From Planctomycetota bacterium (GTDB lineage: Bacteria; Planctomycetota; UBA1135; GCA-002686595), in the NCBI GenBank assembly GCA_020853575.1, contig JADYYP010000071.1:1-64000 (forward strand): a DNA stretch of 64,000 nt. The letters are read 5' to 3'. Under the pieces are notes generated by a model. That model was not told where the DNA came from. It saw only the letters and a list, made by a program, of their open reading frames with translations, and made no database searches. This document shows, in pieces, positions 1 to 25,295 of the stretch (within the stretch, counting starts at the first letter, position 1; every line of letters starts with the position of its first letter). A program made the position numbers and the translations under genes.

Positions 1-153
1 ACCCAGCCAGTTTTCCAGCCGCTCCACGCCTGATCTGCCAACCGCGTAGCGCCGCTTTTCCAAGCACCCCCAGGTGGACCAGCTTCACCCGAACTGAGGT
101 GGACCTGAACAGGCGAGCCTTGACAAGAGACCTACGGACCGGCTGGGGCGCGC
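1..153. other. left edge, no confident gene; direct repeat
   Basis: No convincing reading frame covers these bases. The words aggtggaccagcttc and aggtggacctgaac recur about 30 bases apart near 70-110. Such ggtggacc direct repeats are reminiscent of the terminal regions of IS21-like elements, but no transposase is present in the window. The resemblance is from memory and is weak. Confidence 0.25.
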
Positions 154-372
154 TTGACCGAGGTCGGCAAGGACCTCTGCCTGATCCCCGGCGCGGAGGT
201 AGCGATCCTGAACATACTCGGCACCGACAACGCACGGCTGGGGCAAGTGACGTTGCCCCTGGACTCGTTCATCGGGTTTCACGAGGACGACCCTGCCCGC
301 CGTGCGATGGCGGCGGCCATGTGGAGGACGAACGCGCCGATGCTACTCGAACAGGCGATCCGCAAGCAGTAG
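154..372 (+). CDS. small hypothetical protein (72 aa), possibly a remnant
   Basis: Short frame opening with TTG and ending in TAG. The product is about 72 residues, mixed acidic/hydrophobic, and contains a run LPLDSFIGFHEDDP. Third codon positions are G/C-rich, as expected for real coding sequence here. I recognise no family. It is convergent with hsdR, with one copy of the island palindrome between them. It may be the 3' end of a gene degraded at the island border, or spurious. Confidence 0.3.
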   Translation: MTEVGKDLCLIPGAEVAILNILGTDNARLGQVTLPLDSFIGFHEDDPARRAMAAAMWRTNAPMLLEQAIRKQ

Positions 373-428
373 CCGCAGGGGTTCGCCAAGAGGTAGCTCC
401 GCAGCGCGCGGCGCGAACGCAGGTAACC

Positions 429-445
429 GTAGACACTGTGTCTAC
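429..445. repeat. 17-bp palindrome, island copy 1
   Basis: GTAGACACTGTGTCTAC is a perfect palindrome around a single central base (8-bp arms). It starts 27 bp beyond the hsdR stop codon. It is one of six related copies, all within the first 15 kb, each lying between genes. It could be a recombination site, an operator or part of a terminator; the sequence alone does not decide. Confidence 0.8.
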
Positions 446-471
446 GGGGGGGCACGTCGCGCTGCGCGGGC

Positions 472-3400
472 TCAGCTCGCTGCCTTCTTCTCGTACGTCA
501 GGCCGAAGACCGTGTCGGTCAGCCAGCGGCGGAACGACTCGTTGTCGCTGAACTGCTTGAACAACTCGGTGTCGTCCTTGAGCACGGCCGTCATCACGCG
601 CGCGAGCGCTTTGTCGTGTTCGATGCGCGCGTTCTGCTTGTCGGAGTTCTCCTTGGCGTTCTGGTAGGCCGCGTCGGCCGAGACCTGGGCGGGGATCTCC
701 TGCGTGATGAGTCGATGCACTCGGTCAGCGTCCGTCCACGGGATCTTGCCGAAGTGATCGTTGAAGCTCTTCACGATGTTGGACAGCCGGTCGAGTTCGG
801 GCTCGGGCTTCCGGCCGCCGCCGGTTGTCGGGACCGGCTCGATCTCGGCGTCCTGATCTGGGAGCTGGATCTTCATCGCGGTCTGCTTCTCGATGCGGTA
901 GCTGTCCATGTCGATCGAGTCGAGGATGCCCTTCGACAGGTCCTCCTCCTTCGGAGCGGGGAGCTTCGACACGAGGAAGTTCAAGAGCATCGAGAGCTTC
1001 TCCCAGTCGGCGTTCGTGTACGGAAGGATCGAGGCCAGGAACCCGTACGCGCGCAGGAACGCTTTCGCCTTGCCTTTGAAGTCAACCTGCCCGTCCTCGT
1101 CGAGGTGCGCGACGTACTGCGCAACGCACGCATCGAGGATCGGGTCCAGCTTGTCGCGATCGGCACCGTTCACGTAGAGATCGACGAACGTCTCGACCTG
1201 AGCGCTCGCGTAAACCTGATAGCCGTCGAGCGCGGCCTTGAGGTCGTGCAGCTTGTTCGGGTCGGTCTCCTCGCTGAGGATCGTCGTGCGGTAGTAGTCG
1301 GCGAACGCGGCCTCGATCGTGGCCGAGTCGTTCTGGAAGTCGAGCACGAACACGTCGTGCTTCTCGGGGTGCGCGCGGTTCAATCGCGAGAGCGTCTGCA
1401 CGGCCTTGATACCCGCGAGCGGCTTGTCCACGTACATCGTGTGGAGGAGCGGCTCGTCGTAGCCGGTCTGGAACTTGTCCGCGCAGACGAGGATGCGGTA
1501 CGGGTCCTCTTGGATCGTGTCGGCGATCTTGTTCGAGGGGAATCCGTTGAGCGACGCCTCGGTAACCTTCGCTCCGCCGTACTCGTGCTCGCCGGAGAAG
1601 GCGACGATCACCTTCCAAGGGCTCTTGCGCTCGGCGAGGTAGTCGCGCATCGCGTGGAAATACTGGAGCGCGCGCTCGATGCCGTTGCAGACGACCATCG
1701 CCCGCGCCTTGCCGCCGATCTTGTTCAGGCCGAGCACCTGCTCGTGGAAGTGATCGACCATGATCTCGGCCTTGAGTCGGATCGCGTGTTCGTGACTTTC
1801 GACGTACCGACGCAGCTTCTTCTTCGCGCGCTTGGTGTCGAACTCCGGGTCCGCTTCAACCGTCTTCACGAGCCTGTAGTACGAGTTGACCGGCGTGTAC
1901 TGCTTGAGCACGTCGAGGATGAAGCCTTCCTGGATCGCCTGCTTCATCGTGTAGGCGTGGAACGGCCGGTGCTTCACCACGCCGCCGTCGCTGTACGCCT
2001 CGCCGAAGAGTTCGAGGGTCTTGTTCTTCGGCGTCGCCGTGAACGCGAAGTAGCTCGCGTTCGCGAGGAACTTCCTCGACTCCATGATCCGGTTGATCTT
2101 GTCCTCGGTCGTCTCGTCCTCTTCCTGTCCGCCCGCCTCCGAGAGCGCAGTGCTGAGCGCGGCGGACGTGCGACCGCCCTGACTGGAGTGCGCCTCGTCG
2201 ATGAGGATCGCGAAGCGGCGGGACCTGTGCTGGCTTCCGATCTCTTCGAGGATGAAGGGGAACTTCTGGACCGTCGAGATGATGATCTTCTTGCCGCTCT
2301 CGATGAACGTCTTGAGGTCACCGGAGTTCTTCGCGTGGCCGACGGTCGCGCCGACCTGCGCGAACTGCTTGATCGTGCTACAGATTTGTTGATCGAGGAT
2401 CGTGCGGTCCGTGACGACGAGGATGGAGTCGAACACCTCGGCGTCGGACTTGCGCAGCCCGATGAGTTGGTGCGCGAGCCACGCGATGGAGTTGCTCTTG
2501 CCGCTGCCTGCCGAGTGTTGGATCAGGTAGCGCTTGCCAGCCCCGCGCGTCGCCACGTCGGCGAGGAGCTTGCGCACCACGTCGAGTTGATGGAAGCGCG
2601 GGAAGACCTGAGTGGTCTTCTTCCGGCCTGACTTCTCGTCCTTCGACTCGACGACCTGAGCGTAGTTCTCCAGGATGTTCGTCAACCCATCCGGCGTGAG
2701 CACGCGCCTCCAGAGGAAGTCCGTCTTGATGCCATTCGGGTTCGGCGGATTCCCAGCGCCGTCGTTCCAGCCCTGGTTGAACGGCAGGAACCACGACGCC
2801 TTCCCCTTGAGCTGCGTGCAGAAGCGCACCTCGTGATCGTCCACCGCGAAGTGAACGACGCAGCGCTTGAACTGGAAGAGCAGCTCGCGTGGATCACGGT
2901 CCCGCTTGTACTGCTCGACTGCATCGGCGACCGTCTGCTTCGTCAGGCTGTTCTTGAGTTCAAACGTGGCGATCGGCAGGCCGTTGATGAACAGGCACAG
3001 GTCGAGCGCGAGCTGCGTCTCGTCGCGGCTGTAGCGGAGCTGCCGCGTCACGCTGAATCGGTTCTGGGCGAAGCGTTCCAGTGCCTTCGCGTTGCCGGGG
3101 CTCGGGGTGCCGTAGAAGAGCGCGATGTGGTGCGGGCCGTGCTTGACACCGTGTCTGAGCACGTCGATCACGCCGCGCTTCGCGATCTCGCCTTGGAGTC
3201 GTGCTAGGAACTTCTGACGCACGGGGCTCGCGTGGTCGAGGTCGAACGCTTCGACAAGGCTGAGCTGCGTCGCGGCGACGAAGGCGCGGAGCTGGACGAG
3301 ATCGACCGCGTACTCGCGGTCGTAGTCCTTGGCGTCGCCGAGCAGCCACCCGGTCCCGTAGGTTGCCGGACGTTCGGCCACGCGGTCGCCTTTGGCCGGC

Positions 3401-3477
3401 GGAGGGGGCGGCGGCGGGGCCGTCATGGCCGCCACGATCAGGCTCTCCAGGCCCTTCTCGGAGGTGTCGCTCTTCAT
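472..3477 (-). CDS. hsdR: type I restriction enzyme R subunit (HsdR)
   Basis: About 1001 aa. This is the restriction and DNA-translocation subunit of a type I restriction-modification complex. The N-terminal nuclease region has Asp at about 159 and FELK at about 172-175, matching a PD-(D/E)xK site. The motor has Walker A (SAGSGKS, about 322-328) and DEAH (about 427-430), followed by helicase motifs including the TATP stretch. The ATG at 3477 is preferred over an earlier in-frame ATG at 3522 because a purine-rich GGGGGGAG lies just upstream of it. It is last in the minus-strand operon, 136 bp after the AlbA_2 gene. Length and domain order are normal for HsdR, and no inactivating lesion is visible. 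Confidence 0.95.
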   Translation of the reverse strand: MKSDTSEKGLESLIVAAMTAPPPPPPPAKGDRVAERPATYGTGWLLGDAKDYDREYAVDLVQLRAFVAATQLSLVEAFDLDHASPVRQKFLARLQGEIAKRGVIDVLRHGVKHGPHHIALFYGTPSPGNAKALERFAQNRFSVTRQLRYSRDETQLALDLCLFINGLPIATFELKNSLTKQTVADAVEQYKRDRDPRELLFQFKRCVVHFAVDDHEVRFCTQLKGKASWFLPFNQGWNDGAGNPPNPNGIKTDFLWRRVLTPDGLTNILENYAQVVESKDEKSGRKKTTQVFPRFHQLDVVRKLLADVATRGAGKRYLIQHSAGSGKSNSIAWLAHQLIGLRKSDAEVFDSILVVTDRTILDQQICSTIKQFAQVGATVGHAKNSGDLKTFIESGKKIIISTVQKFPFILEEIGSQHRSRRFAILIDEAHSSQGGRTSAALSTALSEAGGQEEDETTEDKINRIMESRKFLANASYFAFTATPKNKTLELFGEAYSDGGVVKHRPFHAYTMKQAIQEGFILDVLKQYTPVNSYYRLVKTVEADPEFDTKRAKKKLRRYVESHEHAIRLKAEIMVDHFHEQVLGLNKIGGKARAMVVCNGIERALQYFHAMRDYLAERKSPWKVIVAFSGEHEYGGAKVTEASLNGFPSNKIADTIQEDPYRILVCADKFQTGYDEPLLHTMYVDKPLAGIKAVQTLSRLNRAHPEKHDVFVLDFQNDSATIEAAFADYYRTTILSEETDPNKLHDLKAALDGYQVYASAQVETFVDLYVNGADRDKLDPILDACVAQYVAHLDEDGQVDFKGKAKAFLRAYGFLASILPYTNADWEKLSMLLNFLVSKLPAPKEEDLSKGILDSIDMDSYRIEKQTAMKIQLPDQDAEIEPVPTTGGGRKPEPELDRLSNIVKSFNDHFGKIPWTDADRVHRLITQEIPAQVSADAAYQNAKENSDKQNARIEHDKALARVMTAVLKDDTELFKQFSDNESFRRWLTDTVFGLTYEKKAAS

Positions 3478-3613
3478 GCGGAGTGGGCTCCCCCCGGGGG
3501 CGTTGCCGGTCCCATCAAACACCCGTCAAGCAATCGAGGCGGCCCTAACCCTCGGGTCCTGCCTACGTTGTGGCCCCCGAGTCCCTCGGGAGCGGCCTCA
3601 GAGCGGCACCGCA

Positions 3614-5110
3614 TCAAGCAACACCCCCTTGGTGCGACGCCGGGGCAGCCCAGAACGGCAGGTAGCGCCGGACCTTCGTGCCAACCTCGGCGTCCTGGAC
3701 GACGATCAGCCCAGACTCGACGGCCTCGTTGAGCAGGCGCGAGGCCGTGGCCGCGTTCTTCTCTTCGATCCCGAAGCGCTCGCGCAGCGAGGTGTTCGTC
3801 ATCGGCTGCCGGGTCACGTACCGCAAGCAGGCGTGGAGGTAGCAAGCTCGCACGCGGTCGGCCTTCTCCATGTCCTTCAACGCACGGTGGCCGAAGAGCA
3901 CGATGCGCGTGGACTCGCCCGGCGTCTCGAACAGCGGCGCGGGAAGCTGGAACAGCTCGATCTGGAACACGACCTTGTCGATGCCGCTGCCGCGCTCCTC
4001 GCAGATGCCGAAGCGCCGCATGAGAGCCGCGAGCTTCTCGTTGCGCGATCGCGGCGGCTGATCGAGCATCCGATCGGTCGGAACGAGCGGCCGACCGGGG
4101 TTCGTGATCTCCATGCGGTCGTCGAACACCTCGATCATCGGCCCAGCGCCTGTGACCGCGAAGTCTTGGTGAATGAGCGCGTTCGCGACGACTTCACGCA
4201 CGACGAGAGGCGGAAACATCGGAACGGTCTTGCGAAGCGCCTGCTCGATCACCTCGTTCGTCGGGAGGACAGCCAGAACACTCTGAACGAGCGCCTCGAA
4301 GCCCGCCGCGTAGCCAGTGGACACGACCTGCTCCTTCGTCGTGAGGATGCGTCCTTTCCCCGCATACTGGACGATGCGCACGACCTTTCGCCGCAGCCCA
4401 TCGAACTGCGACAGGTCCTTGGCGAACAGGACAGCGCCGAGGTTCGTGATGCTCCACGCGCCTCCTTCCGATCGCTGCACGAGCCCATCGGCTTCCAAGG
4501 CGGCGAGAGTTCCCGTTCGGTCAGACGGAAGTGGAACGCGCAAGAGATCGAAGTAGGACGGGAAGGCGAGCACTTGGAGCACGTCGTCGCCGGACATCCG
4601 CTGCGCCGCGATACCGTCCTCGAACGCCGTCGTCGAGAAGCGCTGCCAAAGAGCGCGCTCCTTCTCGGAGTGGTCCTTGAGCTTCTTCTTGTAGGAGCCG
4701 ACGCGGATGTACTCCTCGCCGTTGAAGCGGACGGGTTGGTGCAGAGCGCTGTCGATCTCCAGGACCACCACGCGCGCTCCATCGACTTCGGCGGTGTGGA
4801 AGCGGAAGGGAACCTGCGGCTGGAGGAGGCGCGTGAGCCAGTTCTCCAAGTCCTCGTTGCCTTGCTTCGTTCTCGCGGGCTCGAACGTGGTGCCAAGCAC
4901 TCTCCTCGTCCCGTCCTCGATGCCCCACACGACGAAGGCCCGAGGCTTGTCGAGTAGCGCGGCCGAGTTCGCTAACGCCGAGATGTACTCGCCGATATCG
5001 GTCGGGTTCGAGTTGTTGACCTTGAACTCGACCCACTCGGTCTCGCGAGGCAAGGTACGCAACTCTAGAACGAGCGCGGAGGCGTCAGCGGACGAGCGCA
5101 ATTCGCTCAC
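3614..5110 (-). CDS. AlbA_2 (Schlafen-type) / GHKL-ATPase-like DNA-binding protein
   Basis: 498 aa. The N-terminal AlbA_2 domain carries the usual E-x-EFK signature (EFK at 28-30) and a VVWGIED strand. The C-terminal half resembles the HATPase_c_4 module of putative RecG-like regulators: REVVANALIHQDF at about 305-317, ITNPGRPL at about 335-342 and EERGSGIDKV at about 371-380. A winged-helix-like tail follows. These proteins are often found next to type I restriction-modification genes; their role there is not settled (regulation or accessory defence). It starts with GTG, and that GTG overlaps the hsdS stop (GTGA), so it is translationally coupled to hsdS. Confidence 0.85.
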   Translation of the reverse strand: MSELRSSADASALVLELRTLPRETEWVEFKVNNSNPTDIGEYISALANSAALLDKPRAFVVWGIEDGTRRVLGTTFEPARTKQGNEDLENWLTRLLQPQVPFRFHTAEVDGARVVVLEIDSALHQPVRFNGEEYIRVGSYKKKLKDHSEKERALWQRFSTTAFEDGIAAQRMSGDDVLQVLAFPSYFDLLRVPLPSDRTGTLAALEADGLVQRSEGGAWSITNLGAVLFAKDLSQFDGLRRKVVRIVQYAGKGRILTTKEQVVSTGYAAGFEALVQSVLAVLPTNEVIEQALRKTVPMFPPLVVREVVANALIHQDFAVTGAGPMIEVFDDRMEITNPGRPLVPTDRMLDQPPRSRNEKLAALMRRFGICEERGSGIDKVVFQIELFQLPAPLFETPGESTRIVLFGHRALKDMEKADRVRACYLHACLRYVTRQPMTNTSLRERFGIEEKNAATASRLLNEAVESGLIVVQDAEVGTKVRRYLPFWAAPASHQGGVA

Positions 5111-6546
5111 ACTCGAACCTCCTCGGCGTCATCCACTAGCTCGTCGTCGTGAAGGGCCTCTTCGGATTCACCACTCACGCCAAGGGTAGGTGAACTGAGC
5201 CTCGTGGCTGGCACTCGTGCTGCGGCGTCGCGTCCGTCAAGAGCCCCGAACACCATGTCGCGAGTCAACCGATCCATGTACTCGCGCAAGAGGTGGATCT
5301 CCACCTCCGCGCGACCGATCGTTGCCGCAAGCGTCCGGGTCAGCGACGTGCATCGCTCGACGAGAGCGCGTTGCTCCGTCAGGGGTGGCACCGCAAACCG
5401 GAAAGCGCGGAGCGCGGAGAGCGGCAAGTTGTTAGCGAGCCCCTCTGCGCCACTGATCGCCTGCTCCACTTGCTCACGGTAGTAGCGACTGTTCATCGCA
5501 AGGACCATGAACTCCGGGTCCACGCTGTCGTTGAACACGGGCCGGAACGTCTTGTCAGACAGCACCAATCGAAACGACAGACTGCGAACGCGCCCGACGG
5601 AGCCGACCAAGTTCGGCGACCCGCAGGCACGTGATATGAGTGTGTCCCCGGAGTTCACGACGATCTGTGGGTCGATCACGAACCCTGGCGGCAATCGCTT
5701 GTGCTCGCGCTCCCTGAACACACCGCGATTCACACATCCAGCCTTGAGGACACCCCAGGCGTCGCCATCGGCCAAGTAGCTCTCGGCCTGCGGACTTACG
5801 CCTTGGTCGATACGGTGAACGAGGGTCTTGAGGCGTCGAACGCTCCAGTTGTGAGGGATGCTCCCGATCGCGCGAAGCTCCGATGGCACTCGCCGCTCGG
5901 CCGCAGTGAAAGCACCTGTGACCGCTTGGTGGATCAGCACCTGCCTTTGCTCTTCGACACGCCGGATGATCGAGCGCTTTGCGTTGATGGCGGATCGCAT
6001 CCGCCGTTCCGCGTGTTCAAGGAAGCGGACGATCGCGCGCTGCTCCTCCAGTGGCGGTGTCGGTGTCGGAATCTGCTTGAAGGCTTCCCAGTACAGCCTG
6101 TTTCGGTCCTTGACGATCCCGCGCGAGAACGTGTCGATCTCCCGCAGGTACTCTGACGTGCGGAACACGCGCGCGATGTAGGCGGCGTCCACATCCGGCA
6201 CGGGCGCGGCGACGACGTACGCGGGGCTCACGAGTCCATCGACCGGCGCGACACCGACCGCGCCCTGCCACATGCGCATCGTGTTGTAGGCGAGGTCCCC
6301 AGCGCACGCCTGCTTGTACTTGGTTCGGTCGGACATCACCTGCTTCCGTCCGCCATCTTTCATGTCCCGCACGCGCACGCCCGATCGCAGCGACACCTCA
6401 AGGATTGGGAGATCGCTGTGCCCCGTCTTGTTGCGCTGCGTGAACAGTCGGCCGTTCCGTACGACCGACCACGACGCCGGGATCTTCGGCAGCCACGGCA
6501 GCCCGGAGTCCTTGTACTTCGGGTACGGAGGCAGATTGTCGATCAC
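5107..6546 (-). CDS. hsdS: type I restriction-modification specificity subunit (HsdS)
   Basis: 479 aa. It sets the DNA target of the HsdM/HsdR complex. Two target-recognition domains can be seen, each ending in a conserved proline-rich junction and a coiled coil: PTPPLEEQRAIVRFLEHAE at about 162-180 with the helix to about 213, and PPLTEQRALVERC near 395-410 with its helix. The duplicated layout and the length are normal for HsdS. Translation starts at GTG, and that codon overlaps the last base of the preceding kwaB-like stop (TAGTG). The modification genes are therefore interrupted by two non-RM genes without any loss of translational coupling. Confidence 0.92.
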   Translation of the reverse strand: MIDNLPPYPKYKDSGLPWLPKIPASWSVVRNGRLFTQRNKTGHSDLPILEVSLRSGVRVRDMKDGGRKQVMSDRTKYKQACAGDLAYNTMRMWQGAVGVAPVDGLVSPAYVVAAPVPDVDAAYIARVFRTSEYLREIDTFSRGIVKDRNRLYWEAFKQIPTPTPPLEEQRAIVRFLEHAERRMRSAINAKRSIIRRVEEQRQVLIHQAVTGAFTAAERRVPSELRAIGSIPHNWSVRRLKTLVHRIDQGVSPQAESYLADGDAWGVLKAGCVNRGVFREREHKRLPPGFVIDPQIVVNSGDTLISRACGSPNLVGSVGRVRSLSFRLVLSDKTFRPVFNDSVDPEFMVLAMNSRYYREQVEQAISGAEGLANNLPLSALRAFRFAVPPLTEQRALVERCTSLTRTLAATIGRAEVEIHLLREYMDRLTRDMVFGALDGRDAAARVPATRLSSPTLGVSGESEEALHDDELVDDAEEVRV

Positions 6547-7460
6547 TACTCGTTCCTCCCCAGCGCCCCGAGTTTCGATCGGCTCGCTGCGCGATAGGTC
6601 TCGGGCGATCCGGGCACCAAGTCGATGCGGTAACGACGGCGATCAAGCACTTCAAGGAACCCCAGCACCTCGTCAGGTGGAACTACAAACTTGCCATCCT
6701 TGACGGAGATCGTGACGCCCGTCTGCTTGCAGCACCGCTTGAGAGCTGTCTTGTCGATGTTCGCAGACTCGCCTTGGGATCGAATCGACGCGAGGTAACG
6801 GGCCGCGCGAGGGTGCTTGGATGCGTAGGTCTCGATCGAATCGAACTCCACGAACGCCATCGACCGGCGAATCTCGGCGACGTTTGCCGGAACGGCGTCC
6901 AGGATGGCTCCCTGTAGATGGGCCGCGAACTCGAAACCGCTTGGCCGAAGGATGTGGATGCGCTCAGCGTCCACCAAGACATCGAAGTCGTTGTCCAACT
7001 TGAACACGTGGTCTTCGACGAGATGGAGGGCGTCGTTCACGACCTGGAGCAGCCGCTTCTTGAGCACGCCCTTGAATTGGGTTGCACGTCTCAGAGCCGT
7101 GAGGCGGCGACCTTGTGCGTCCGTGAACCGGGCGAAGTATGCGAACACGTCCGCTGGATTGGAGAGCGCTCGCGCGTTGACGGGAAGATTCGCGGCCTCG
7201 TGAAGCTGCCGCAGGTCGGACGCGAGCGCATCGTCGAACGCAACCGCGACGTACTCCTGGCTCGCGTACTTCTCAGAAGGCTCGTAGATTGAGGGCTCAG
7301 ATGCGCTCGCGAGCATCGCATCCACAGTTGCGGCAGCCATTTCCTTGAGCGCGCTCTGAACGCTGGCTTCAACCGGGACATAGAAGTAGGCGGAGGCGCT
7401 CTCGTGTCCAACGCCGAACTCAGTGGTGCGGACGCTGTTCAGGTCGAATGCGAGCGTCAT
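6546..7460 (-). CDS. kwaB: Kiwa protein KwaB-like (DUF4868)
   Basis: 304 aa, soluble. The core from about 115 to 292 matches what I know of DUF4868. A helix (FKGVLKKRLLQVVNDALHLV) is followed by FKLDNDFDVLVDAERIHILRP and then a F-to-A-x-S pattern. Next come RAARYLASIRSQGE and a DGKFVVPPDEVLGFLEVLDRRRY segment close to the C-terminus. KwaB is the soluble partner of the membrane protein KwaA in the Kiwa anti-phage system. A compact polytopic membrane gene lies directly upstream and overlaps by ATGA, exactly as expected for kwaA-kwaB. Family assignment is from memory of the domain, not from a search. Codons are less GC-extreme than in the chromosomal genes further right. Confidence 0.75.
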   Translation of the reverse strand: MTLAFDLNSVRTTEFGVGHESASAYFYVPVEASVQSALKEMAAATVDAMLASASEPSIYEPSEKYASQEYVAVAFDDALASDLRQLHEAANLPVNARALSNPADVFAYFARFTDAQGRRLTALRRATQFKGVLKKRLLQVVNDALHLVEDHVFKLDNDFDVLVDAERIHILRPSGFEFAAHLQGAILDAVPANVAEIRRSMAFVEFDSIETYASKHPRAARYLASIRSQGESANIDKTALKRCCKQTGVTISVKDGKFVVPPDEVLGFLEVLDRRRYRIDLVPGSPETYRAASRSKLGALGRNE

Positions 7461-8023
7461 TCGGCCTCCTCGAAGTAGATGGTGTCGCTAAGTCTGTAGG
7501 CGCTCAAGGTCTGCCCAGGAGACAACGCCGGACGACGGGTGATGACGACGAATCTCTCGCGCCCGCTCAGCGAGTTGTTGTCGATGGGTGGCTGTACGGT
7601 GAAGACGCGGAAGCCCTGGAGCGCGAACAGGATGTTCATGTAGTGCAGGTTCAGGTGCCAGAACAGAAACACGATGAACACGATTGCGGCGGCCGTTGCG
7701 GAGATGTCTCGCCACGTCCCCAGCGGCACCGTGTAGAAGGGCAGCAAGAGCGCAAACAGATAGACGAGTACGTGGTCGCGATGATCTTCGGCGACGCCAA
7801 TGGTCAGGGTTCGTAGTTCTCGGTTCTTGCGCGCCGCTCGCTTGCGCAGGATCAGCGCGAGGTTTGGCAGTACGACCATGAGGATGCAAGCAGGGACGAA
7901 GTAGCGGTCGGCGATGAACTCGTTGCCCCGTAGCGCCCAGAGCAGGAACAGCGGCGACATGCTGCTCAGGACCATGAGCAGCCGGGCAATTCTCAACCCC
8001 TCGCCATGCGTGGAGGGAATCAC
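7457..8023 (-). CDS. kwaA: Kiwa protein KwaA-like membrane protein
   Basis: 188 aa with four predicted membrane helices at about 13-31, 41-59, 84-102 and 108-136. A roughly 50-residue soluble tail ends in DTIYFEEAE. The sequence is too divergent to name on its own. The call rests on size, four-helix topology and an immediate four-base overlap with a DUF4868 gene, which is the known Kiwa arrangement. KwaA is thought to sit in the inner membrane and respond to phage infection together with KwaB. Translation starts at GTG 8023, overlapping the hsdM stop (GTGA). The gene is thus wired into the restriction-modification operon between hsdM and hsdS. Confidence 0.7.
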   Translation of the reverse strand: MIPSTHGEGLRIARLLMVLSSMSPLFLLWALRGNEFIADRYFVPACILMVVLPNLALILRKRAARKNRELRTLTIGVAEDHRDHVLVYLFALLLPFYTVPLGTWRDISATAAAIVFIVFLFWHLNLHYMNILFALQGFRVFTVQPPIDNNSLSGRERFVVITRRPALSPGQTLSAYRLSDTIYFEEAE

Positions 8024-10440
8024 GGCGCGCTCCCTCTGACTGCCGACTCGATGCGGCGCGCTCGCGAGGTGTCGTGTTCGTCCGACGGTGCAGGCGAACG
8101 CTGGGTTGTCCCGACGATCTCCGCGATCAGTCCTTCGCTCTCGCGTTCCAGCGCGAGAATGTCGGCGCGGATCTCATCCAACGTGCGCAGCGGCTGGGGC
8201 TTGTAGAAGTGCCGCGTGAAGCTGACCTCGTACCCGATCTTGGTCGCCCCCTCGTCGATCCAGGCGTCGGGGGTGTGCGGCAACACCTCACGGCGGAAGA
8301 ACGCTTCGATGCCACCCGGTTCGAGCAACGGGATCTGCTCGGAGTCACGGAGATCGGCGTCCGGCTCGTACTCGACGATCGCGCGCTTCCCGTCCACCGT
8401 CGTCTCGTAGCGCCCGTGCAGCGGATCGACCGACGACTTGCTGGGCTTGTGAACGCTCTTGATGACCGGCGGGGCAGTCTCGACCGTCCAGCTCACGGCG
8501 CGGAGCAACGCCTTCTTGTCGGGAGCGCTGAGCGCGAGCCCGAGCTTCTCGAGCGCTGCATCGACCCGAGCGCGGAACTCGTTGTGGTCTTCGTACAGCC
8601 CGTCGCCCAGCTCCTCGCGGAGCGCGTTGGCGACTTCGACGAGCTGTGAGTCCCGCGCCCACGTCTTGGCTTCGAGTAGCTTCTTGCGCTTCTTCTCCGG
8701 GATCGAGCGCTTCGTGGTCTCGCCGTTCTCCTCGTCGTCATCCTCGGACTCGCCCGCGCTCCACTTGTCGAGTAGTGCTTCGACCTTCGAGCGTACGCTG
8801 GCGAAGTTCTCGAAGATCGCTTCGCCGACGCTGTCGTACAGCTCGGTGCGGAGGTCGGGATCACCTGAGGTGAACCGCAGCGACTCGATTGCCTTGCGCG
8901 TCAACTGGCTGTGGAGGCGAAGCGGGCGCTCGACGCGGATCTTCCAGTAGCCGAAGGCTTCGTTCTGGAAGACCTTCGAGCACTCGGCGTCCTCGAAGCG
9001 CATGAACGTGTCGCAGATGCGCGCGATGTGCTCCTCGGCGAACTCGCAGTTCTTCTTCCCGAGGTTCTTCGGCAGCGGACGGAACCACCCAGTCGCGTCG
9101 ATGAGCTGAACCTTGCCGCGTCGGTGCTCGGGCTTGCGGTTGGTGAGCACCCACACGTAGGTAGCGATGCCCGTGTTGTAGAACATGTTCAGGGGCAGGG
9201 CGACGATGGCTTCGAGCCAGTCGTTCTCGATGATCCACCGGCGGATGTTGCTCTCGCCTTGGCCTGCGTCGCCCGTGAAGAGCGACGATCCGTTGTGAAC
9301 CTCGGCGATGCGGCTGCCGAGCGGCGTGCCGTGCTTCATCTTCGAGAGCATGTTCGCGAGGAACAGCATCTGGCCGTCGCTCGTGCGCGTGACGAGCGAG
9401 AACTCGCTGTCGCCGTCGTGCTCGATGAGGAAGCGCGGGTCCTTGAGTTCGTCCTTGCCGCCAAGGCGTTCGAGGTCACCCTTCCAGGACTTGCCGTACG
9501 GCGGGTTCGACAACATGAAGTCGAACTCGCGCGAAGGGAACGCATCGCTCGCGAGCGTCGAGTGCTCGGGACCGCCGACGATGTTGTCTGCCGCGTCGCC
9601 CTCGCCCTTGAGGAGCAGGTCGGACTTGCAGATCGCGTAGGTCTCGGCGTTGATCTCCTGCCCGTACAGGTGCGTCGCCACTTTCTTGCCGTGCTGCTTC
9701 GCGAGTTCCTGGAGCGTCTCTTCGGCAACCGTCAGCATCCCGCCGGTGCCGCACGCGCCGTCGTACAGGAGGTAGGTGCCCGACTTGATGCGATCGGCAA
9801 CCGGCAGGAAGATCAGCCGCGCCATGAGCTTCACGGCGTCGCGCGGCGTCCAGTGCTCGCCTGCCTCCTCGTTGTTGTCCTCGTTGAAGCGACGGACAAG
9901 CTCCTCGAAGATCGTGCCCATGCCGTGGTTGTCGAGACCCGGCTGCTTGATCGAGTTGTCCGGGTTGCGAACGGCCTGCGGGCTGAGGTTGACGGTGGGG
10001 TCGAGGAACTTCTCGATTAGCGTCCCGAGCGCGTCCGCCTTCGAGAGGCGTGGGATCTGGTTGCGGAACTCGAAGTTGTCGAGGATGTCCTGGACGTTCG
10101 GCGAGAACCCGTCGAGGTACGCCTCGAAGTCGGCCTTGAGCTGCTCGCGATTGGAGCGCGAGCGCAGGTCGCGCAGCGTGAACTTCGACGTGTTGTAGAA
10201 CGCCTGCCCGGCGGCCTGTCGTAGCGCTTGGTCCTGATTCGCGATCTTCGCCTTGTCCAGGTTGGCCTTCATGTCGAGGACGGCCTTCTTCGTCGGCTCC
10301 AGCACGGCGTCCAGGCGGCGGAGCACGGTGAAGGGCAGGATCACGTCCCGGTACTTCCCCCGGACGTAGACATCGCGCAGCACATCGTCCGCGATGTTCC
10401 AGATGAAGTTGGCGATCCAGGAGAGTTGGCCTTGATCCAT
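8020..10440 (-). CDS. hsdM: type I restriction-modification DNA methyltransferase subunit (HsdM)
   Basis: 806 aa. Adenine-N6 methyltransferase subunit, which with HsdS protects host DNA. HsdM_N helical domain from about 1 to 145; SAM-binding motif ACGTGGM at about 229-235; catalytic NPPY at about 312-315, typical of N6-adenine enzymes. The C-terminal 280 residues, beyond the usual methylase core, are charged and include an acidic stretch (EDDDEENGE). Extended HsdM forms of about 700-800 aa are common. The start at ATG 10440 (MDQGQLSWIANFIW) is chosen because family members begin at this helix. The longer upstream frame is Arg-rich and unlike HsdM. Confidence 0.95.
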   Translation of the reverse strand: MDQGQLSWIANFIWNIADDVLRDVYVRGKYRDVILPFTVLRRLDAVLEPTKKAVLDMKANLDKAKIANQDQALRQAAGQAFYNTSKFTLRDLRSRSNREQLKADFEAYLDGFSPNVQDILDNFEFRNQIPRLSKADALGTLIEKFLDPTVNLSPQAVRNPDNSIKQPGLDNHGMGTIFEELVRRFNEDNNEEAGEHWTPRDAVKLMARLIFLPVADRIKSGTYLLYDGACGTGGMLTVAEETLQELAKQHGKKVATHLYGQEINAETYAICKSDLLLKGEGDAADNIVGGPEHSTLASDAFPSREFDFMLSNPPYGKSWKGDLERLGGKDELKDPRFLIEHDGDSEFSLVTRTSDGQMLFLANMLSKMKHGTPLGSRIAEVHNGSSLFTGDAGQGESNIRRWIIENDWLEAIVALPLNMFYNTGIATYVWVLTNRKPEHRRGKVQLIDATGWFRPLPKNLGKKNCEFAEEHIARICDTFMRFEDAECSKVFQNEAFGYWKIRVERPLRLHSQLTRKAIESLRFTSGDPDLRTELYDSVGEAIFENFASVRSKVEALLDKWSAGESEDDDEENGETTKRSIPEKKRKKLLEAKTWARDSQLVEVANALREELGDGLYEDHNEFRARVDAALEKLGLALSAPDKKALLRAVSWTVETAPPVIKSVHKPSKSSVDPLHGRYETTVDGKRAIVEYEPDADLRDSEQIPLLEPGGIEAFFRREVLPHTPDAWIDEGATKIGYEVSFTRHFYKPQPLRTLDEIRADILALERESEGLIAEIVGTTQRSPAPSDEHDTSRARRIESAVRGSAP

Positions 10441-10513
10441 GCGCGTCAGGTCCGGGTGCGAGGGAGACGAACCGCGTTGGCGGTCGTTCCGGGAGCGGGG
10501 GCGTCGATGTGGC

Positions 10514-10711
10514 TCACGCGCGGGCCTTCTTCTTCGCGCGGTCACGGACCTGGGCGGCGACCCAGCTCTCGACATCGGAGCGACGAAACCGCCACGCCGA
10601 GCCGAGCCGGAAGGACGGCAGCTCGCCGCTCTTCGCTAGGCGGTAGGTTTTCTTCTCCGACACGCGGAGCAGACGGGCGACTTCGGGGATGGTCATGACG
10701 CTGAGGGGCAT
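10514..10711 (-). CDS. small HTH DNA-binding protein (excisionase/HTH_17 type)
   Basis: 65 aa. The sequence contains a MerR/excisionase-type helix-turn-helix: TIPEVARLLRVSEKKTYRLAKSGELPSFRLGSAWRFRRSDVESWV. It ends in a Lys/Arg tail. Proteins of this class usually bind DNA as small regulators or recombination directionality factors. It is first in the minus-strand operon, 73 bp ahead of hsdM, and reads away from the divergent lipoprotein gene. A role as local regulator of the restriction-modification/Kiwa operon is plausible but inferred. A second in-frame ATG lies 15 bases further in. No integrase accompanies it, so an excisionase role is less likely. Confidence 0.8.
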   Translation of the reverse strand: MPLSVMTIPEVARLLRVSEKKTYRLAKSGELPSFRLGSAWRFRRSDVESWVAAQVRDRAKKKARA

Positions 10712-10832
10712 GGCGGTACAGCCTGCGGGGTGAGGCGAGCCTCGGCTGCCATCATGTCCAAAACGTCCAAGGATCGCCAAGTGGAAGCTGGCTGCCCTGC
10801 GGGTCGCGGGCGGGGGAGAGGCCCGGCCGCTG

Positions 10833-10849
10833 GTAGACACGGTGTCTGC
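10833..10849. repeat. 17-bp palindrome, island copy 2
   Basis: GTAGACACGGTGTCTGC, one mismatch from the perfect palindrome. It lies almost midway between the divergent starts of the HTH gene (10711) and the lipoprotein gene (10955), where an operator would sit. GC-rich partial inverted repeats (cccggccgc before, gggggccgg after) extend the symmetry. Confidence 0.75.
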
Positions 10850-10954
10850 GGGGGCCGGTGCCACTCGCGGGTTCGGTCGCTGCGCAGGCCGGTCCCCCCG
10901 ACAGCGGGGCGGGGAACGCTCAAGGATCGTCCGGGGCTCGCCGATGTCGAAGGG

Positions 10955-11794
10955 ATGCTTCCCCTCCGCGCTTGGCCCTTCGTACTCGCTGCCGTCGCCA
11001 GCTCCTGCTCGGCGGTCGGTCCAAAGCTCGACCTGCCGACGCCGGTCGTCGTCAACGATGTCCGCGTCGAGCTGACCGGCGTGCTCACGCAATACGGACG
11101 CGGCGGAGTGGGCGGGTTCAGGGGAGCTGCAACCAACACGTCCGACGAAGCGCTCACGTACTGCGTCATCACGTTGGAACTGCTCGACCCGTCCGGCGCG
11201 AAGATCGGCGACGCGATGGCGACGACCACGCATCTAGACGCCGGACAGACGTGGCGCTTCGACGCTCACAACGCCAACACGATCTCCTCGCCCGTCGAGC
11301 GGGTCCGAGTAGCGCAGGTGCAGACCAACCGGAGCCTGCTCGCGGGGCTCGTGAAGCCGAGAGGGAATCCTGGTGCGTCCAGCGGCCGAAGCGGGGTCGA
11401 TGCTACCCAGACACCGAAGGTCGATGCCCTCGCAGCTCCCTATGCGGATGAGCAGGCCGACCGCGTCGAGCGCGCCATCCTCCGCATCGGAGAGACCCGC
11501 CCGGTCGCCGGTGCTGCCACCGAGCCGTTCACCTTCACGATCCAGCTCGCGAAGCCGAAGGATGACGGCAGCTTCGCCGCCAACTTCCAAGCGGTCGCGT
11601 TCGTTCACACCGTCGCGGGGAACATCGAGGATGGCCTCGCGCTCTACCGCGTCGGACTCGTCGCGGGCGAGCCACGGATCGTGCTGCGTGGCCAGATCAA
11701 CTCGCGGCGCTACGAGGTGTTGTGGGAGTCCTGGCAGGACGGCTGGCGGCGCGCTGGGAGCCCGGTCTCCCAGTGGATCGAGTTCGATGACTAG
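10955..11794 (+). CDS. lipoprotein with FxLYD domain
   Basis: 279 aa. A short signal sequence ends in a lipobox-like VASSC, so the mature protein is probably a lipid-anchored envelope protein. Residues about 30-100 fit the FxLYD fold: GVLTQYGR, AATNTSDEALTYCVITLELLDPSG and LDAGQTWRFDA are the typical strands. The C-terminal half (about 155-279) is a separate beta-rich region ending WRRAGSPVSQWIEFDD that I do not recognise. It lies alone between palindrome copies 2 and 3. The Shine-Dalgarno-like gaaggg is unusually close to the ATG, so the start is not certain. Confidence 0.7.
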   Translation: MLPLRAWPFVLAAVASSCSAVGPKLDLPTPVVVNDVRVELTGVLTQYGRGGVGGFRGAATNTSDEALTYCVITLELLDPSGAKIGDAMATTTHLDAGQTWRFDAHNANTISSPVERVRVAQVQTNRSLLAGLVKPRGNPGASSGRSGVDATQTPKVDALAAPYADEQADRVERAILRIGETRPVAGAATEPFTFTIQLAKPKDDGSFAANFQAVAFVHTVAGNIEDGLALYRVGLVAGEPRIVLRGQINSRRYEVLWESWQDGWRRAGSPVSQWIEFDD

Positions 11795-11842
11795 GTGCCG
11801 AGACGGCTCGCGCTGCGCTGGACCGATGACATGGGGTCAGCG

Positions 11843-11859
11843 CTAGACACCGTGTCTGG
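11843..11859. repeat. 17-bp palindrome, island copy 3
   Basis: CTAGACACCGTGTCTGG, 48 bp after the FxLYD lipoprotein stop. It is followed by cgagcc, similar to the caagcc after copy 4. The 183 bp between copies 3 and 4 hold no gene; they include a half-site (gctagacaccgag) at about 12014. Confidence 0.7.
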
Positions 11860-12042
11860 CGAGCCCCCGGTTGCCACCCCGCCCTCAGGGTCATAGGGCA
11901 CACGGCGCGTCTCGGCGATCGGCGGGCCGAACAGTCTCATGCTTCCGCTTGCAGAGAGACTGCGGCTCCCAGAGACCCTATCCCCCCGGTCGAAAAGCAG
12001 GCGGCGGGAGACGCTAGACACCGAGCGGCAGGGACATTCCTC

Positions 12043-12059
12043 GTAGACGGCGTGTCTGG
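12043..12059. repeat. 17-bp palindrome, island copy 4
   Basis: GTAGACGGCGTGTCTGG, the most degenerate copy. It lies 11 bp beyond the stop of the HU-like gene and is followed by caagcc, like the flank of copy 3. Confidence 0.6.
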
Positions 12060-12070
12060 CAAGCCTGCGG

Positions 12071-12532
12071 TCAGGACTGGGCCATCTGCGTCGCGATCGA
12101 CTGGCGGATCTCAGCGTTCGTCATCTCGGGAAGCGATCCGCGACCCGTCGTCGGCAATCGGAGCGCGTGGTTGCTCCGATGCTTGGCAAGTCGGCGCTTC
12201 GCCCACGTCGTTGCCGGGGCGGAGTATCGCACCCGCTCGTTGAACGAACGCGATGGCGAGAACTTCGGTTGGCATCGCGCCGATGGATCGCGAGCAAGGG
12301 CGGAGGGCGACTCGATGAGCCACGCCGCGAACGCACCGAACTTCTCGATCGACACGACGTGTCCGTTCGCGACTTCGTCCACGACTTCCTCCAGGAATGC
12401 GGCGACGACGGCTTCGACCTGCTCGCGCTCCATGTCGAGGCGATGCGAGGTTGCGGTCAGCGCGCGCCGTAGGGGTTCGCCGCTTGCCTTCTTGGAGAAG
12501 CAGGAGAGATTCACGACGGTGATTATCGACAA
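12071..12532 (-). CDS. divergent HU/IHF-like DNA-binding protein
   Basis: 153 aa. Residues about 20-100 follow the HU pattern: an N-terminal helix pair (PLRRALTATSHRLDMEREQVEAVVAAF), EEVVDEVANGHVVSIEKFGAF, then a strand region with PSARCQPKFSPSRSFNERVR in place of the DNA-binding arm and final helix. The C-terminal extension of about 50 residues is Arg-rich and unrelated to HU. The start must lie upstream of the first helix; TTG 12532 is used, and GTG 12514 is an alternative. It lies 30 bp after the metallopeptidase-like lipoprotein gene, so the two are probably co-transcribed. A specialised rather than general nucleoid protein is likely, given its divergence and island location. Confidence 0.6.
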   Translation of the reverse strand: MSIITVVNLSCFSKKASGEPLRRALTATSHRLDMEREQVEAVVAAFLEEVVDEVANGHVVSIEKFGAFAAWLIESPSALARDPSARCQPKFSPSRSFNERVRYSAPATTWAKRRLAKHRSNHALRLPTTGRGSLPEMTNAEIRQSIATQMAQS

Positions 12533-12562
12533 CGCAGTGCCCGGATGGAAGGCCGCCTGGAT

Positions 12563-13267
12563 TCAGGGACGCGCCACGTGCGGCGGCAGCGTCGAGCCTT
12601 CGATCCAGGCGATCGGAACGCGCTCGCGCCCCTCGCGTTGCGCACGTTCGCACAGCTCGCGCAGGCCCTCGATGCCGAACCGCTGGACGATCTCGAAGCC
12701 GACGGCGTAGGCGTCGGAGCGGACCTCTCGGGGCGTCGTCGCCCACGTGCGTTCGCTGACTGCCAGCGCTTGCTCGCGGCGCTCGGGCGTGATTGAAGCA
12801 AGTCGGCGGTCCAACTCGGCGATACGTTCGTCGCGGAACTCGGGCGCAACGTGGACGGCGATGTAGTCCGCGAGTCCCTCCTCGATCGCGTGCGGCAACC
12901 GATCCCACGGCGCGCTCGCGTACCAGTGGACGAGTTCGTGCGCGACCGAGAAGCGCGCTTGGTCGCGCAGGGCCGCGTCGCCGATCACGATTCGACGCTC
13001 GACGATCTCGTCGCCGTCGCGCCACACCGCGAGCCCGAGACTCTCGCTGCCGGACACGTGGTAGATGACGAAGGGCGGCTCGGGCTCGACGCCGAGCTTG
13101 GTGCAGACCTCGGCTGTGAACAGGTTCCCAATCATCGCGAGCATCCGCGCGTCGTTCGGATCGTCGGCGCGGGCGACTCCTGAGGGAGAGCGGTGCTCGA
13201 ACTCCGGCATCGAGCTGCACGAGGCGAGCGCGAGCTGGAGGACAAGGGAGAGCGTGAGGTGTCGCAT
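12563..13267 (-). CDS. metallopeptidase-like lipoprotein (HExxH)
   Basis: 234 aa. A signal sequence ends in LALASC, with the predicted lipid-modified Cys at 17. The zinc motif HELVH (110-114) is followed by IEEGLADYIA (about 128-137), whose glutamate is well placed as the third ligand. This is the layout of gluzincin or peptidase MA-like enzymes. The protein is probably an envelope-anchored protease of unknown substrate. It precedes the HU-like gene by 30 bp on the same strand, and palindrome copy 5 lies upstream. Nothing suggests a defect. The specific family cannot be set from sequence reading alone. Confidence 0.75.
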   Translation of the reverse strand: MRHLTLSLVLQLALASCSSMPEFEHRSPSGVARADDPNDARMLAMIGNLFTAEVCTKLGVEPEPPFVIYHVSGSESLGLAVWRDGDEIVERRIVIGDAALRDQARFSVAHELVHWYASAPWDRLPHAIEEGLADYIAVHVAPEFRDERIAELDRRLASITPERREQALAVSERTWATTPREVRSDAYAVGFEIVQRFGIEGLRELCERAQREGRERVPIAWIEGSTLPPHVARP

Positions 13268-13352
13268 CGAGAGGGTGGCGGAACAGGGGGCGATCGTAGA
13301 ACCTGAACCCGTGTCGGAAATCGTCAGGGAGCGCTGTGGTCATGTCCTCCGC

Positions 13353-13369
13353 GCAGACAACGTGTCTAC
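13353..13369. repeat. 17-bp palindrome, island copy 5
   Basis: GCAGACAACGTGTCTAC. It lies between the start of the metallopeptidase-like lipoprotein gene and the 3' end of the replication-protein gene, 78 bp beyond the latter's stop. Confidence 0.7.
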
Positions 13370-13447
13370 GGGGTGATCTTGCTTCGCAGCCTCCGACGTG
13401 AGTGCGTCGTCGCAGGTCCAGACGGGCGAGATCGGGGAGGACCGGCG

Positions 13448-14569
13448 TCAACTCGGACCGAGGAGGTCGCCGGGAACCGTTCTGCGGGGCGATCCATAGC
13501 AGATGTTGAGCAGAGAATCCGGGATGACGCTCGCGCGCTCCAGCAACCGTTTGATCTTCCCGTACTCGCGGTACGTCTTGGGGTCGCACGTCGCGCGCAT
13601 CGCGGCGTCGAATGTCGCGCATCGAGCCATGTGCCCAGCGATCGTCTCTCGTCGCGTGTGGAAGACCTCGATCGGCGGATCGAGCTGCGCGATCTCGTAC
13701 GCCAACGCGGTGTGCAGCGCGCGGTGGTCGAGGTAGTGAGAGACGGCGAACACCCCGTTTCGGCAGGACTCGACGAGTCGAATGCGCTCCGGCCTGTAGC
13801 CGGTCGGCGCGAGCAGCTCGGCGAGGCGTGCCAGTGTCTCGGGACCGCGCCACTGCCGCTCGACTCGAAGAACTGTCCCAGGGTCTGGGGCACCCGAGCA
13901 GCCTCGGCTCCTCATCTCCAGACCCTTGTCGTACACGGTCAGTCGGTTGTCCGTTCCCGCCCATGCGAGACCTCCCGTCCACCGCTGGGGAGCGGAAAGG
14001 GTGCGAGGCCACTTCGACAGCTCGTATCCACGCAGGACCCGCTGCACGTCCGTCTCGCGGTCGAGTGCCAAGGCGATCTCCGCGACGGCCCATTCGCGAT
14101 CGCCGAACTGAGCCTTGTGCGTCGTGATCGGGAAGAGGTCGCGGGTGATCGCCTGTAGCGCCGCGACGACATCGGCCTCGCTCAGCTCGTGCAGTCGATC
14201 GTTCGTGAGTCCGAGGAGTCGAGGCAGGGAGGCGGTGACCGCCAACTTGCGTTCGTGGACGAACAGTCGGCACCCGTCTTCGCGTCTCAGGTAGCGCTCT
14301 GCCCCCGGCTCGATGTCGAAGAGCTGATCGTTCGGGCCGCGCTTGCAACGCGCCGCTCCAGCGACGGGCTCGAATCCGTTGTCTTCGAGCTGCCTTCGAT
14401 CGCGCCCGTGCAGGGGTTGCAAGAGCGAGACGCGAACGCTGTCCACGATTCCGTGAGACGGAAGGTGGAGCCCACGCGATGCGACGAACTCAGCGAGCAG
14501 TGTCGATCGGTCGCGAATCGCCTGACGACGTGCTGCTTGTTCTGCGTGCGCCGCTGCGCGATGGCGCAT
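13448..14569 (-). CDS. phage/plasmid replication protein, gene II/X-like
   Basis: About 373 aa. The central part follows the filamentous-phage gene II/X replication family: a VAEIALALDRETDVQRVLRGY segment, then GGLAWAGTDNRLTVYDKGLEM with the characteristic vYdKg-E motif. RVERQWRGPETLARL, the R-x-E strand and helix, comes next. The tail (KTYREYGKIKRLLERASVIP) is also typical of such Rep proteins. These start rolling-circle replication by nicking a hairpin origin; I cannot point to the nucleophilic tyrosine with certainty. The start is unclear: ATG 14569 is used, and the frame stays open to 14773. No coat or assembly genes accompany it, so it looks like an orphan of a plasmid or phage. Confidence 0.55.
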   Translation of the reverse strand: MRHRAAAHAEQAARRQAIRDRSTLLAEFVASRGLHLPSHGIVDSVRVSLLQPLHGRDRRQLEDNGFEPVAGAARCKRGPNDQLFDIEPGAERYLRREDGCRLFVHERKLAVTASLPRLLGLTNDRLHELSEADVVAALQAITRDLFPITTHKAQFGDREWAVAEIALALDRETDVQRVLRGYELSKWPRTLSAPQRWTGGLAWAGTDNRLTVYDKGLEMRSRGCSGAPDPGTVLRVERQWRGPETLARLAELLAPTGYRPERIRLVESCRNGVFAVSHYLDHRALHTALAYEIAQLDPPIEVFHTRRETIAGHMARCATFDAAMRATCDPKTYREYGKIKRLLERASVIPDSLLNICYGSPRRTVPGDLLGPS

Positions 14570-14786
14570 CCAAGGAGGGGAGTTCTTCCCTTCCGTGCTT
14601 CCGATAGAAGGACCGCGAGCCGCGTGTCCCTCGCGCTCCAGACTCCGCGAGGAGCGTTGGGACGCTTCGTTTAGACGGCGTAGCTCGGGCCGAGCACGAT
14701 GCGCCGTCGCCGTAGGGGACGCGCGTTCTGTAGGGGCGTGGACGCGCGGCACAGTTCGTCGGTAGACTTTCACTCGTCAGTCCTCC

Positions 14787-14831
14787 GACTCTCGCGTGGC
14801 ATCCGGTTCCAACGTCGGCCGCGCGAGAGTC
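14787..14831 (+). terminator. hairpin followed by a pyrimidine run
   Basis: gactctcgcg (14787-14796) pairs perfectly with cgcgagagtc (14822-14831), with a 25-base loop, and is followed by ttcttcttgg on the plus strand. The shape resembles an intrinsic terminator for plus-strand transcription, but no plus-strand gene lies immediately upstream, so the role is uncertain. Confidence 0.3.
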
Positions 14832-14960
14832 TTCTTCTTGGTGTTGATGGTGGGTGGGGATCGCCGTGTTTGGTGACGCGGCGTTCGGTGGCGACTGGTT
14901 CCGTCCTGACGGCGCGCCGGGCGCTGCGATGCGCATCGAACATCCCTCGCCCGTCTGAGG

Positions 14961-15383: not shown

Positions 15384-15406
15384 GACGAATGGGAGCTCCC
15401 GAGACC

Positions 15407-25285: not shown

Positions 25286-25295
25286 CCCACGCAAA

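What the first reader, a model, noticed from the sequence alone, without database searches (positions are those of the whole stretch)
5107..10440. Complete Kiwa-like pair (kwaA-kwaB) embedded inside a type I restriction-modification operon between hsdM and hsdS
Seen: a four-helix membrane gene (7457-8023) and a DUF4868-like gene (6546-7460) lie between hsdM and hsdS. Each junction overlaps by 1-4 bases (GTGA, ATGA, TAGTG). Known: Kiwa is normally described as a stand-alone two-gene anti-phage system. Inferred: the overlaps mean the five proteins from HsdM to the AlbA_2 protein are made in fixed proportion, so this is probably a co-evolved composite defence system rather than a chance insertion. 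HsdS or HsdM could gate Kiwa, or Kiwa could act when restriction is blocked.
Basis: partly seen in the sequence, partly recalled or inferred. Interest (0 to 1): 0.87.

Follow-up and report, generated by a model that had tools for sequence, protein, structure and literature searches.

The report
Kiwa defence pair inside restriction operon
A complete two-gene membrane anti-phage system (Kiwa) sits between the methylase and specificity genes of a bacterial DNA-restriction operon, a variable slot that other bacteria leave empty or fill with other defence genes, so the operon most likely carries two independent layers of phage defence that are switched on and moved together.

Summary
The minus-strand operon reads HTH_17 – hsdM – kwaA – kwaB – hsdS – AlbA_2 – hsdR. 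Intact KwaA and KwaB match PADLOC Kiwa models (E 1.9e-85, 5e-132), and their predicted folds match the solved Kiwa structures. This is not one odd genome: 14 of 19 members of this Kwa clade (PADLOC model PDLC00228) sit in type I restriction operons, in at least six named phyla, against 3 of 23 other Kiwas (Fisher p = 1e-4).

The clade accompanies very different HsdM backbones (window HsdM at most 25% identical to the others; KwaB 47-62%), in different operon positions, and also occurs alone. The window's HsdM backbone is common without Kwa: its hsdM/hsdS junction is empty in an Enterobacter plasmid and elsewhere holds GmrSD, Fic, PRTase-CE or HATPase genes. Best reading: an optional, self-sufficient Kiwa cargo in a recurrent slot, giving layered, co-expressed, co-mobile defence. 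A co-transcribed type I RM–KwaAB–DarTG unit is already published in Shewanella (PMC12016545), which lowers the novelty. Gating between the two systems remains possible but has no positive evidence.

The parts
10514..10711 (-). HTH_17 (excisionase/regulator-like) gene directly upstream of hsdM
   Evidence: Pfam PF12728 2.5e-17; start MPLSVMTIPEVARLL read from the sequence
8020..10440 (-). hsdM, type I DNA N6-adenine methyltransferase subunit
   Evidence: Pfam N6_Mtase 2.6e-50 and HsdM_N 5.3e-24; PADLOC MTase_I PDLC03029 856.9 bits; motifs DGACGTGG and NPPY
7457..8023 (-). kwaA, membrane subunit of Kiwa; overlaps hsdM by 4 bp
   Evidence: PADLOC PDLC00218 1.9e-85; hydropathy peaks; model matches solved KwaA 9mrg/9mrx, Foldseek E 1e-4, prob 1.00
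6546..7460 (-). kwaB, DUF4868 subunit of Kiwa; overlaps kwaA by 4 bp
   Evidence: Pfam PF16162 over cut-off; PADLOC PDLC00228 5.1e-132; model matches solved KwaB 9nyu/9mtn/9mrx, Foldseek E 4e-11 to 3e-10
5107..6546 (-). hsdS, type I specificity subunit; overlaps kwaB by 1 bp
   Evidence: Pfam Methylase_S 1.3e-06; PADLOC Specificity_I 1.2e-71, residues 5-443
3614..5110 (-). Schlafen AlbA_2 + HATPase_c_4 protein, a common accessory of type I RM operons; overlaps hsdS by 4 bp
   Evidence: Pfam SLFN_AlbA_2 1.9e-19, HATPase_c_4 2.1e-23; the same gene type in the RM operons of L008, L009, L013, L119, L124
472..3522 (-). hsdR, type I restriction/translocase subunit
   Evidence: Pfam HSDR_N 5.5e-20, SWI2_SNF2 3.4e-28; nuclease and motor motifs intact
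429..445 (.). 17-bp palindrome GTAGACACTGTGTCTAC just outside the hsdR end of the operon
   Evidence: 9 matches on both strands in the window against 0.07 expected
10833..10849 (.). second palindrome, GTAGACACGGTGTCTGC, just outside the HTH_17/hsdM end; with 429-445 it brackets the operon

Best explanation
A bona fide Kiwa (KwaA membrane tetramer plus KwaB DNA-binding dimer) is carried as optional cargo in the hsdM-hsdS slot of a mobile type I restriction-modification operon. It most likely works by itself as E. coli Kiwa does (KwaA senses phage attachment or injection at the inner membrane and brings KwaB to the entering DNA, where replication and late transcription are blocked), while HsdR/M/S cuts unmethylated DNA. 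The operon gives one transcription unit, translational coupling at the overlaps, and joint transfer, so the cell gets two complementary layers: phages that evade restriction (modified DNA, anti-restriction proteins) still meet Kiwa. Shown here: identity of the genes, fold, recurrence, backbone swapping, empty and differently filled slots. Inferred: co-transcription, activity and mechanism in this organism.
For: Kiwa identity by profile and fold; solved E. coli Kiwa chains are the top PDB profile hits. Same Kwa clade in type I operons in 14 of 19 tree members against 3 of 23 outside. Unrelated HsdM backbones (window at most 25% to the others while KwaB is 47-62%) and different slots: M-AB-S (window, L016), M-S-AB (L003, L008, L009, L015, L017, L060, L074), R-AB (L010, L011), M-AB (L006). 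Same Kwa without type I genes on its strand in L005, L007, L012, L084. Window HsdM backbone without Kwa: 32 of 236 genomes of the window's phylum carry it (E at most 1e-60), but only the window genome of 392 carries this Kwa; 813 plasmid records match HsdM, but only two distant Kwa records exist. Empty junction in L117 and L127; other cargo in the slot: GmrSD (L123-L125), PRTase-CE (L120), Fic (L128), DUF4062-HATPase (L126). Island GC 62-64% against about 70-72% further on. Published parallels: co-transcribed type I RM-KwaAB-DarTG protects E. coli against T1, EEP, T4, T7 (PMC12016545); TgvAB inside a type I operon defends without HsdR activity (PMC11411939). Kiwa mechanism as reviewed in PMC12904381.
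Against: The strong clade bias (14/19) could mean more than convenience, since other Kiwa clades are rarely RM-linked. Precise 1-4 bp overlaps on both sides suggest selection for coordinated expression. Three further Kiwas sit beside Eco57I-type methylases (L014, L067, L073), hinting at a link to DNA methylation. Nothing was tested in a cell.
Confidence: 0.66

Rival explanations
1. Guard model, as in EcoprrI-PrrC: the HsdRMS complex (or its state) holds Kiwa in check, and phage anti-restriction proteins release it as a second line.
For: PrrC is encoded inside a type IC locus, silenced by the RM enzyme and activated by T4 Stp (PMC2610378 and PMC12707154). Strong clade-level linkage of Kwa to type I operons.
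Against: No single RM partner: several divergent HsdM backbones and varying slots; Kwa members of the same clade exist alone (L005, L007, L084); the window's RM backbone occurs without Kwa in many genomes. Canonical Kiwa needs no RM partner (PMC12904381).
Confidence: 0.14
2. Methylation-licensed Kiwa: the operon's methyltransferase marks self DNA so that this KwaB clade binds only unmodified incoming DNA, making Kiwa a second restriction arm of the same recognition system.
For: Kwa linked to methyltransferases of more than one class: type I HsdM (clade), fused HSDR_N_2-N6_Mtase plus HsdS (L069, L075), Eco57I-type methylases (L014, L067, L073). In L069 kwaAB directly follows hsdM-hsdS with no separate hsdR within about 10 kb.
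Against: Clade members without any methylase on their strand (L005, L007, L084); L069 and L075 carry a nuclease domain fused to the methylase, so no case of Kwa replacing the nuclease was found; E. coli KwaB binds DNA without a dedicated methylase (PMC12904381).
Confidence: 0.1
3. Neutral hitch-hiking: Kwa genes are repeatedly dropped into RM operons by recombination around hsdS, with no functional benefit from the arrangement.
For: HsdS fragments adjoin kwa or hsdS in L006, L015, L060, and the slot accepts many unrelated genes, as expected of a recombination hotspot.
Against: The identified cargo is defence-related, frames and 1-4 bp overlaps are kept in at least eight loci, and Kwa sequences are conserved; pure chance would not put 14 of 19 clade members into type I operons.
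Confidence: 0.1

Closest known systems
Kiwa (KwaA-KwaB)
   Same: Both genes, order, overlap, profile match and predicted fold.
   Different: Only 11-15% aligned identity to the solved chains; separate PADLOC clade (PDLC00228/PDLC00218); lies inside a type I RM operon.
GItrmA defence unit of Shewanella putrefaciens CN32 (type I RM-KwaAB-DarTG, co-transcribed; PMC12016545)
   Same: Type I RM and Kiwa in one transcription unit on a mobile island; active against phages in E. coli.
   Different: By locus numbers the Kiwa genes follow the three RM genes rather than lying between hsdM and hsdS, and DarTG is added; the roles of the single modules were not separated in the passages read. Which Kwa clade it belongs to was not tested.
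TgvAB (GmrSD-like) inside the V. cholerae VPI-2 type I RM operon (PMC11411939)
   Same: Two-gene defence cargo embedded in a type I operon; complementary layers.
   Different: Type IV restriction of modified DNA, not a membrane system.
DarTG2 inside the EPEC type I RM operon with RptR (PMC12255303)
   Same: Defence module embedded in a type I operon with a small upstream regulator.
   Different: Toxin-antitoxin cargo between hsdS and hsdR; RptR was not compared with the HTH_17 gene seen here.
EcoprrI-PrrC
   Same: Extra defence gene within a type I hsd operon.
   Different: PrrC is an anticodon nuclease physically gated by the RM enzyme; no such domain or gating evidence here.

Membership tests
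Kiwa | KwaB with DUF4868 (PF16162) | tested here: met
   PF16162 37.1 bits over cut-off 26.3; PDLC00228 437.8 bits
Kiwa | KwaA, small membrane protein with four helices | tested here: met
   PDLC00218 283.3 bits; hydropathy peaks near residues 22, 51, 94 and 110-126; NCBIfam KwaA 55 bits, under its strict cut-off of 100
Kiwa | Fold of solved KwaA and KwaB | tested here: met
   KwaB model: only the KwaB entries 9nyu, 9mtn, 9mrx at E<0.001, TM 0.56-0.59; KwaA model: only the KwaA entries 9mrg, 9mrx, 9mrr, TM 0.46-0.55, model confidence modest at pLDDT 70
Kiwa | Adjacent kwaA-kwaB, same strand | tested here: met
   ATGA overlap at 7457-7460
Kiwa | Membrane supercomplex, DNA binding by KwaB, anti-phage activity | not testable with these tools
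   needs experiments
Type I restriction-modification system | HsdM, HsdS and HsdR with intact motifs | tested here: met
Type I restriction-modification system | Site-specific methylation and restriction activity | not testable with these tools
   needs methylome and plating tests
PrrC-type RM guard | Anticodon nuclease domain in the embedded gene | tested here: not met
   embedded genes are KwaA and KwaB
PrrC-type RM guard | Silencing by the RM enzyme and release by anti-restriction proteins | not testable with these tools
   no experiment; comparative evidence of a single fixed RM partner is absent

The most novel reading that the evidence does not exclude
The PDLC00228 Kiwa clade is functionally tied to restriction-modification: the operon's methylase or specificity subunits license or gate KwaB, so Kiwa acts as a membrane-based second arm of the RM system, explaining why this clade and not other Kiwas lives in type I operons.
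Probability: 0.13. Interest if true: 0.82.

Novelty: new variant of a known kind. Interest (0 to 1): 0.45.

Why it matters
It defines one Kiwa clade that is repeatedly housed in type I RM operons across phyla, and identifies the hsdM-hsdS junction as a variable cargo slot with empty, Kiwa-filled and otherwise filled versions of the same backbone. That makes the question of whether embedded defences are merely co-expressed or truly coupled directly testable, and the slot can be scanned to find new defence genes.

Tried and rejected
Kwa as replacement for HsdR: considered because L069 has hsdM-hsdS-kwaA-kwaB and no hsdR within about 10 kb, but its HsdM carries a fused HSDR_N_2 nuclease domain; L075 is the same, with its contig ending upstream; rejected. 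Phages and viral contigs as carriers: only one viral contig (L084) encodes a near relative and it has no type I genes beside Kwa. Single-sequence search of solved structures gave nothing useful; profile search did. The Kiwa structure paper itself is not held. No held paper describing this clade's RM linkage was found, but the preprint on embedded defences (Payne et al. 2024) and the Kiwa paper could not be read, so priority is not excluded. The palindrome pair on contig C81 was looked at; it shares no other sequence with the window.
Full report
What is there. The left 10.7 kb of the window is one minus-strand operon: HTH_17 gene, hsdM, kwaA, kwaB, hsdS, an AlbA_2/HATPase gene, and hsdR. KwaB matches Pfam KwaB over its cut-off and PADLOC KwaB PDLC00228 over its whole length (5.1e-132). 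KwaA matches PADLOC PDLC00218 over its whole length (1.9e-85) and has about four hydrophobic peaks. Profiles of the family hit the solved Kiwa chains first in the PDB (E 1e-4 to 7e-4), and AlphaFold models hit only KwaB (9nyu, 9mtn, 9mrx) and only KwaA (9mrg, 9mrx, 9mrr) at E<0.001. HsdM, HsdS and HsdR are full length, and the HsdM and HsdR motifs are intact.

Is it more than chance? A scan of one genome per species found 16 relatives, and PF16162 searches of four other phyla gave further Kiwas, fetched with about 10 kb of flank on each side where the contig allowed. The tree of KwaA+KwaB puts the window in a group of 19 rows (support 94/95); 14 of these are in type I RM operons and one is beside an Eco57I methylase, against 3 type I cases among 23 other rows (Fisher p = 1.0e-4; 2.4e-4 after removing the near-identical L010/L011). 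The RM-linked hosts include Armatimonadota, Verrucomicrobiota, Pseudomonadota, Synergistota, Bacillota and Bacteroidota. The Fisher test ignores relatedness, but the tree itself needs at least seven changes of the RM-linked state, so linkage has been gained or lost repeatedly. The clade coincides with PADLOC model PDLC00228.

Co-evolved or cargo? Window HsdM is at most 25% identical to every other HsdM of the set, while its KwaB is 47-62% identical to those of the clade; conversely L015 and L016 share 75% in HsdM but 41% in KwaB. The pair lies between M and S (window, L016), after S (L003, L004, L008, L009, L013, L015, L017, L060, L074), after R (L010, L011) or after M (L006). An RM gene overlaps kwaA by 4 bp in the window, L004, L008, L013, L017, L060 and L074, and the Eco57I methylase does so in L014. 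The same Kwa occurs without type I genes on its strand in L005, L007, L012 and L084. So the partners are exchanged, not co-inherited.

The empty site. The window's HsdM backbone is common: 32 of 236 genomes of its phylum and 813 plasmid records carry a relative, yet only the window genome of 392 sampled carries this Kwa, and plasmids hold only two distant Kwas. In the Enterobacter plasmid L117 hsdM and hsdS overlap by 1 bp, and in L127 by 4 bp: nothing between. Elsewhere the same junction holds GmrSD (L123, L124, L125), PRTase-CE (L120), Fic (L128) or a DUF4062-HATPase (L126). In a different backbone (L118) the hsdS-hsdR gap holds a SIR2 gene. The hsdM-hsdS junction is therefore a recurrent cargo slot, and kwaAB is its content here.

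How it works. Canonical Kiwa acts alone at the membrane: KwaA tetramers with KwaB dimers gather at the injection site and KwaB binds the DNA, blocking replication and late transcription (PMC12904381). Given the conserved fold, the stand-alone members and the exchange of RM partners, the likeliest arrangement is two independent layers sharing one transcript and one mobile island. Embedded TgvAB works without HsdR activity (PMC11411939). In Shewanella putrefaciens CN32 a 9.9-kb type I RM-KwaAB-DarTG fragment is co-transcribed and protects E. coli (PMC12016545). A PrrC-like guard (PMC12707154, PMC2610378) or methylation licensing cannot be excluded, but nothing here points to a fixed partner. The overlaps support coordinated translation; 'fixed proportion' does not follow, since purine-rich Shine-Dalgarno-like stretches precede kwaA, kwaB and hsdS.

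Novelty. Embedding of defence genes in type I operons is known (PrrC, DarTG2, TgvAB), and one RM-Kiwa transcription unit is published. New here, as far as the held papers show, are the clade-wide, multi-phylum linkage, the exact insertion between hsdM and hsdS, and the demonstration of empty and alternative fillings of that slot. Two key texts (the Kiwa structure paper and the embedded-defence preprint) were not available.

Limits. Several loci end at contig edges (L004, L013, L017, L075), so their operons are seen only in part. The window's own phylum is not named by the tools. Control Kiwas were sampled from four phyla. No activity was measured.

Noticed in passing
window 429-445, 10833-10849, 11843-11859, 13353-13369, 14989-15005: A 17-bp palindrome GTAGACACNGTGTCTAC recurs only in the first 15 kb (9 strand matches against 0.07 expected); two copies bracket the hsd-kwa operon. 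Two more sites lie 10.2 kb apart on another contig (C81) of the same genome. Possibly recombination sites of a cassette-like island; not identified.
   Followed up: partly
window 1-15000 versus 15000-30000: GC is 62-64% over most of the operon and about 66-68% from 10.5 to 15 kb, against about 69-72% beyond: the RM-Kiwa operon lies in an acquired island.
   Followed up: partly
window 13448-14773 (-) and 12071-12532 (-): A 441-aa ORF without Pfam hit that by eye resembles replication-initiation proteins of small phages or plasmids (a lead, not tested), next to a small HU-like DNA-binding gene, in the same island.
   Followed up: partly
L014 5665-9414, L067 11189-14365, L073 5208-8597: Kiwa pairs directly downstream of Eco57I-type methylases (with a SIR2, PHP-SMC or SNF2/PLD partner gene nearby) in three separate lineages.
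   Followed up: partly
L069 5108-10303, L075 610-6855: Divergent Kiwas joined to fused nuclease-methylase (HSDR_N_2 + N6_Mtase) plus HsdS operons in Bacteroidota.
   Followed up: partly
L006 9145-9429, L060 9365-9643, L015 8036-8353: Fragments of HsdS lie against kwaA, kwaB or hsdS, as if Kwa entered by recombination at hsdS.
   Followed up: partly
L120-L128: The hsdM-hsdS slot of this RM backbone holds GmrSD, Fic, PRTase-CE or HATPase genes in other genomes; scanning this slot could reveal new defence genes (e.g. the unassigned ORFs L125 3872-4351 and 8450-9325, and L123 5623-6483, which lies after hsdS).
   Followed up: partly
L016 11397-13025: HsdS with a fused nucleotidyltransferase-like N-terminal domain.
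   Followed up: no
L084 10001-10909: A viral contig (IMG/VR) carries a 55% identical KwaB with KwaA.
   Followed up: partly
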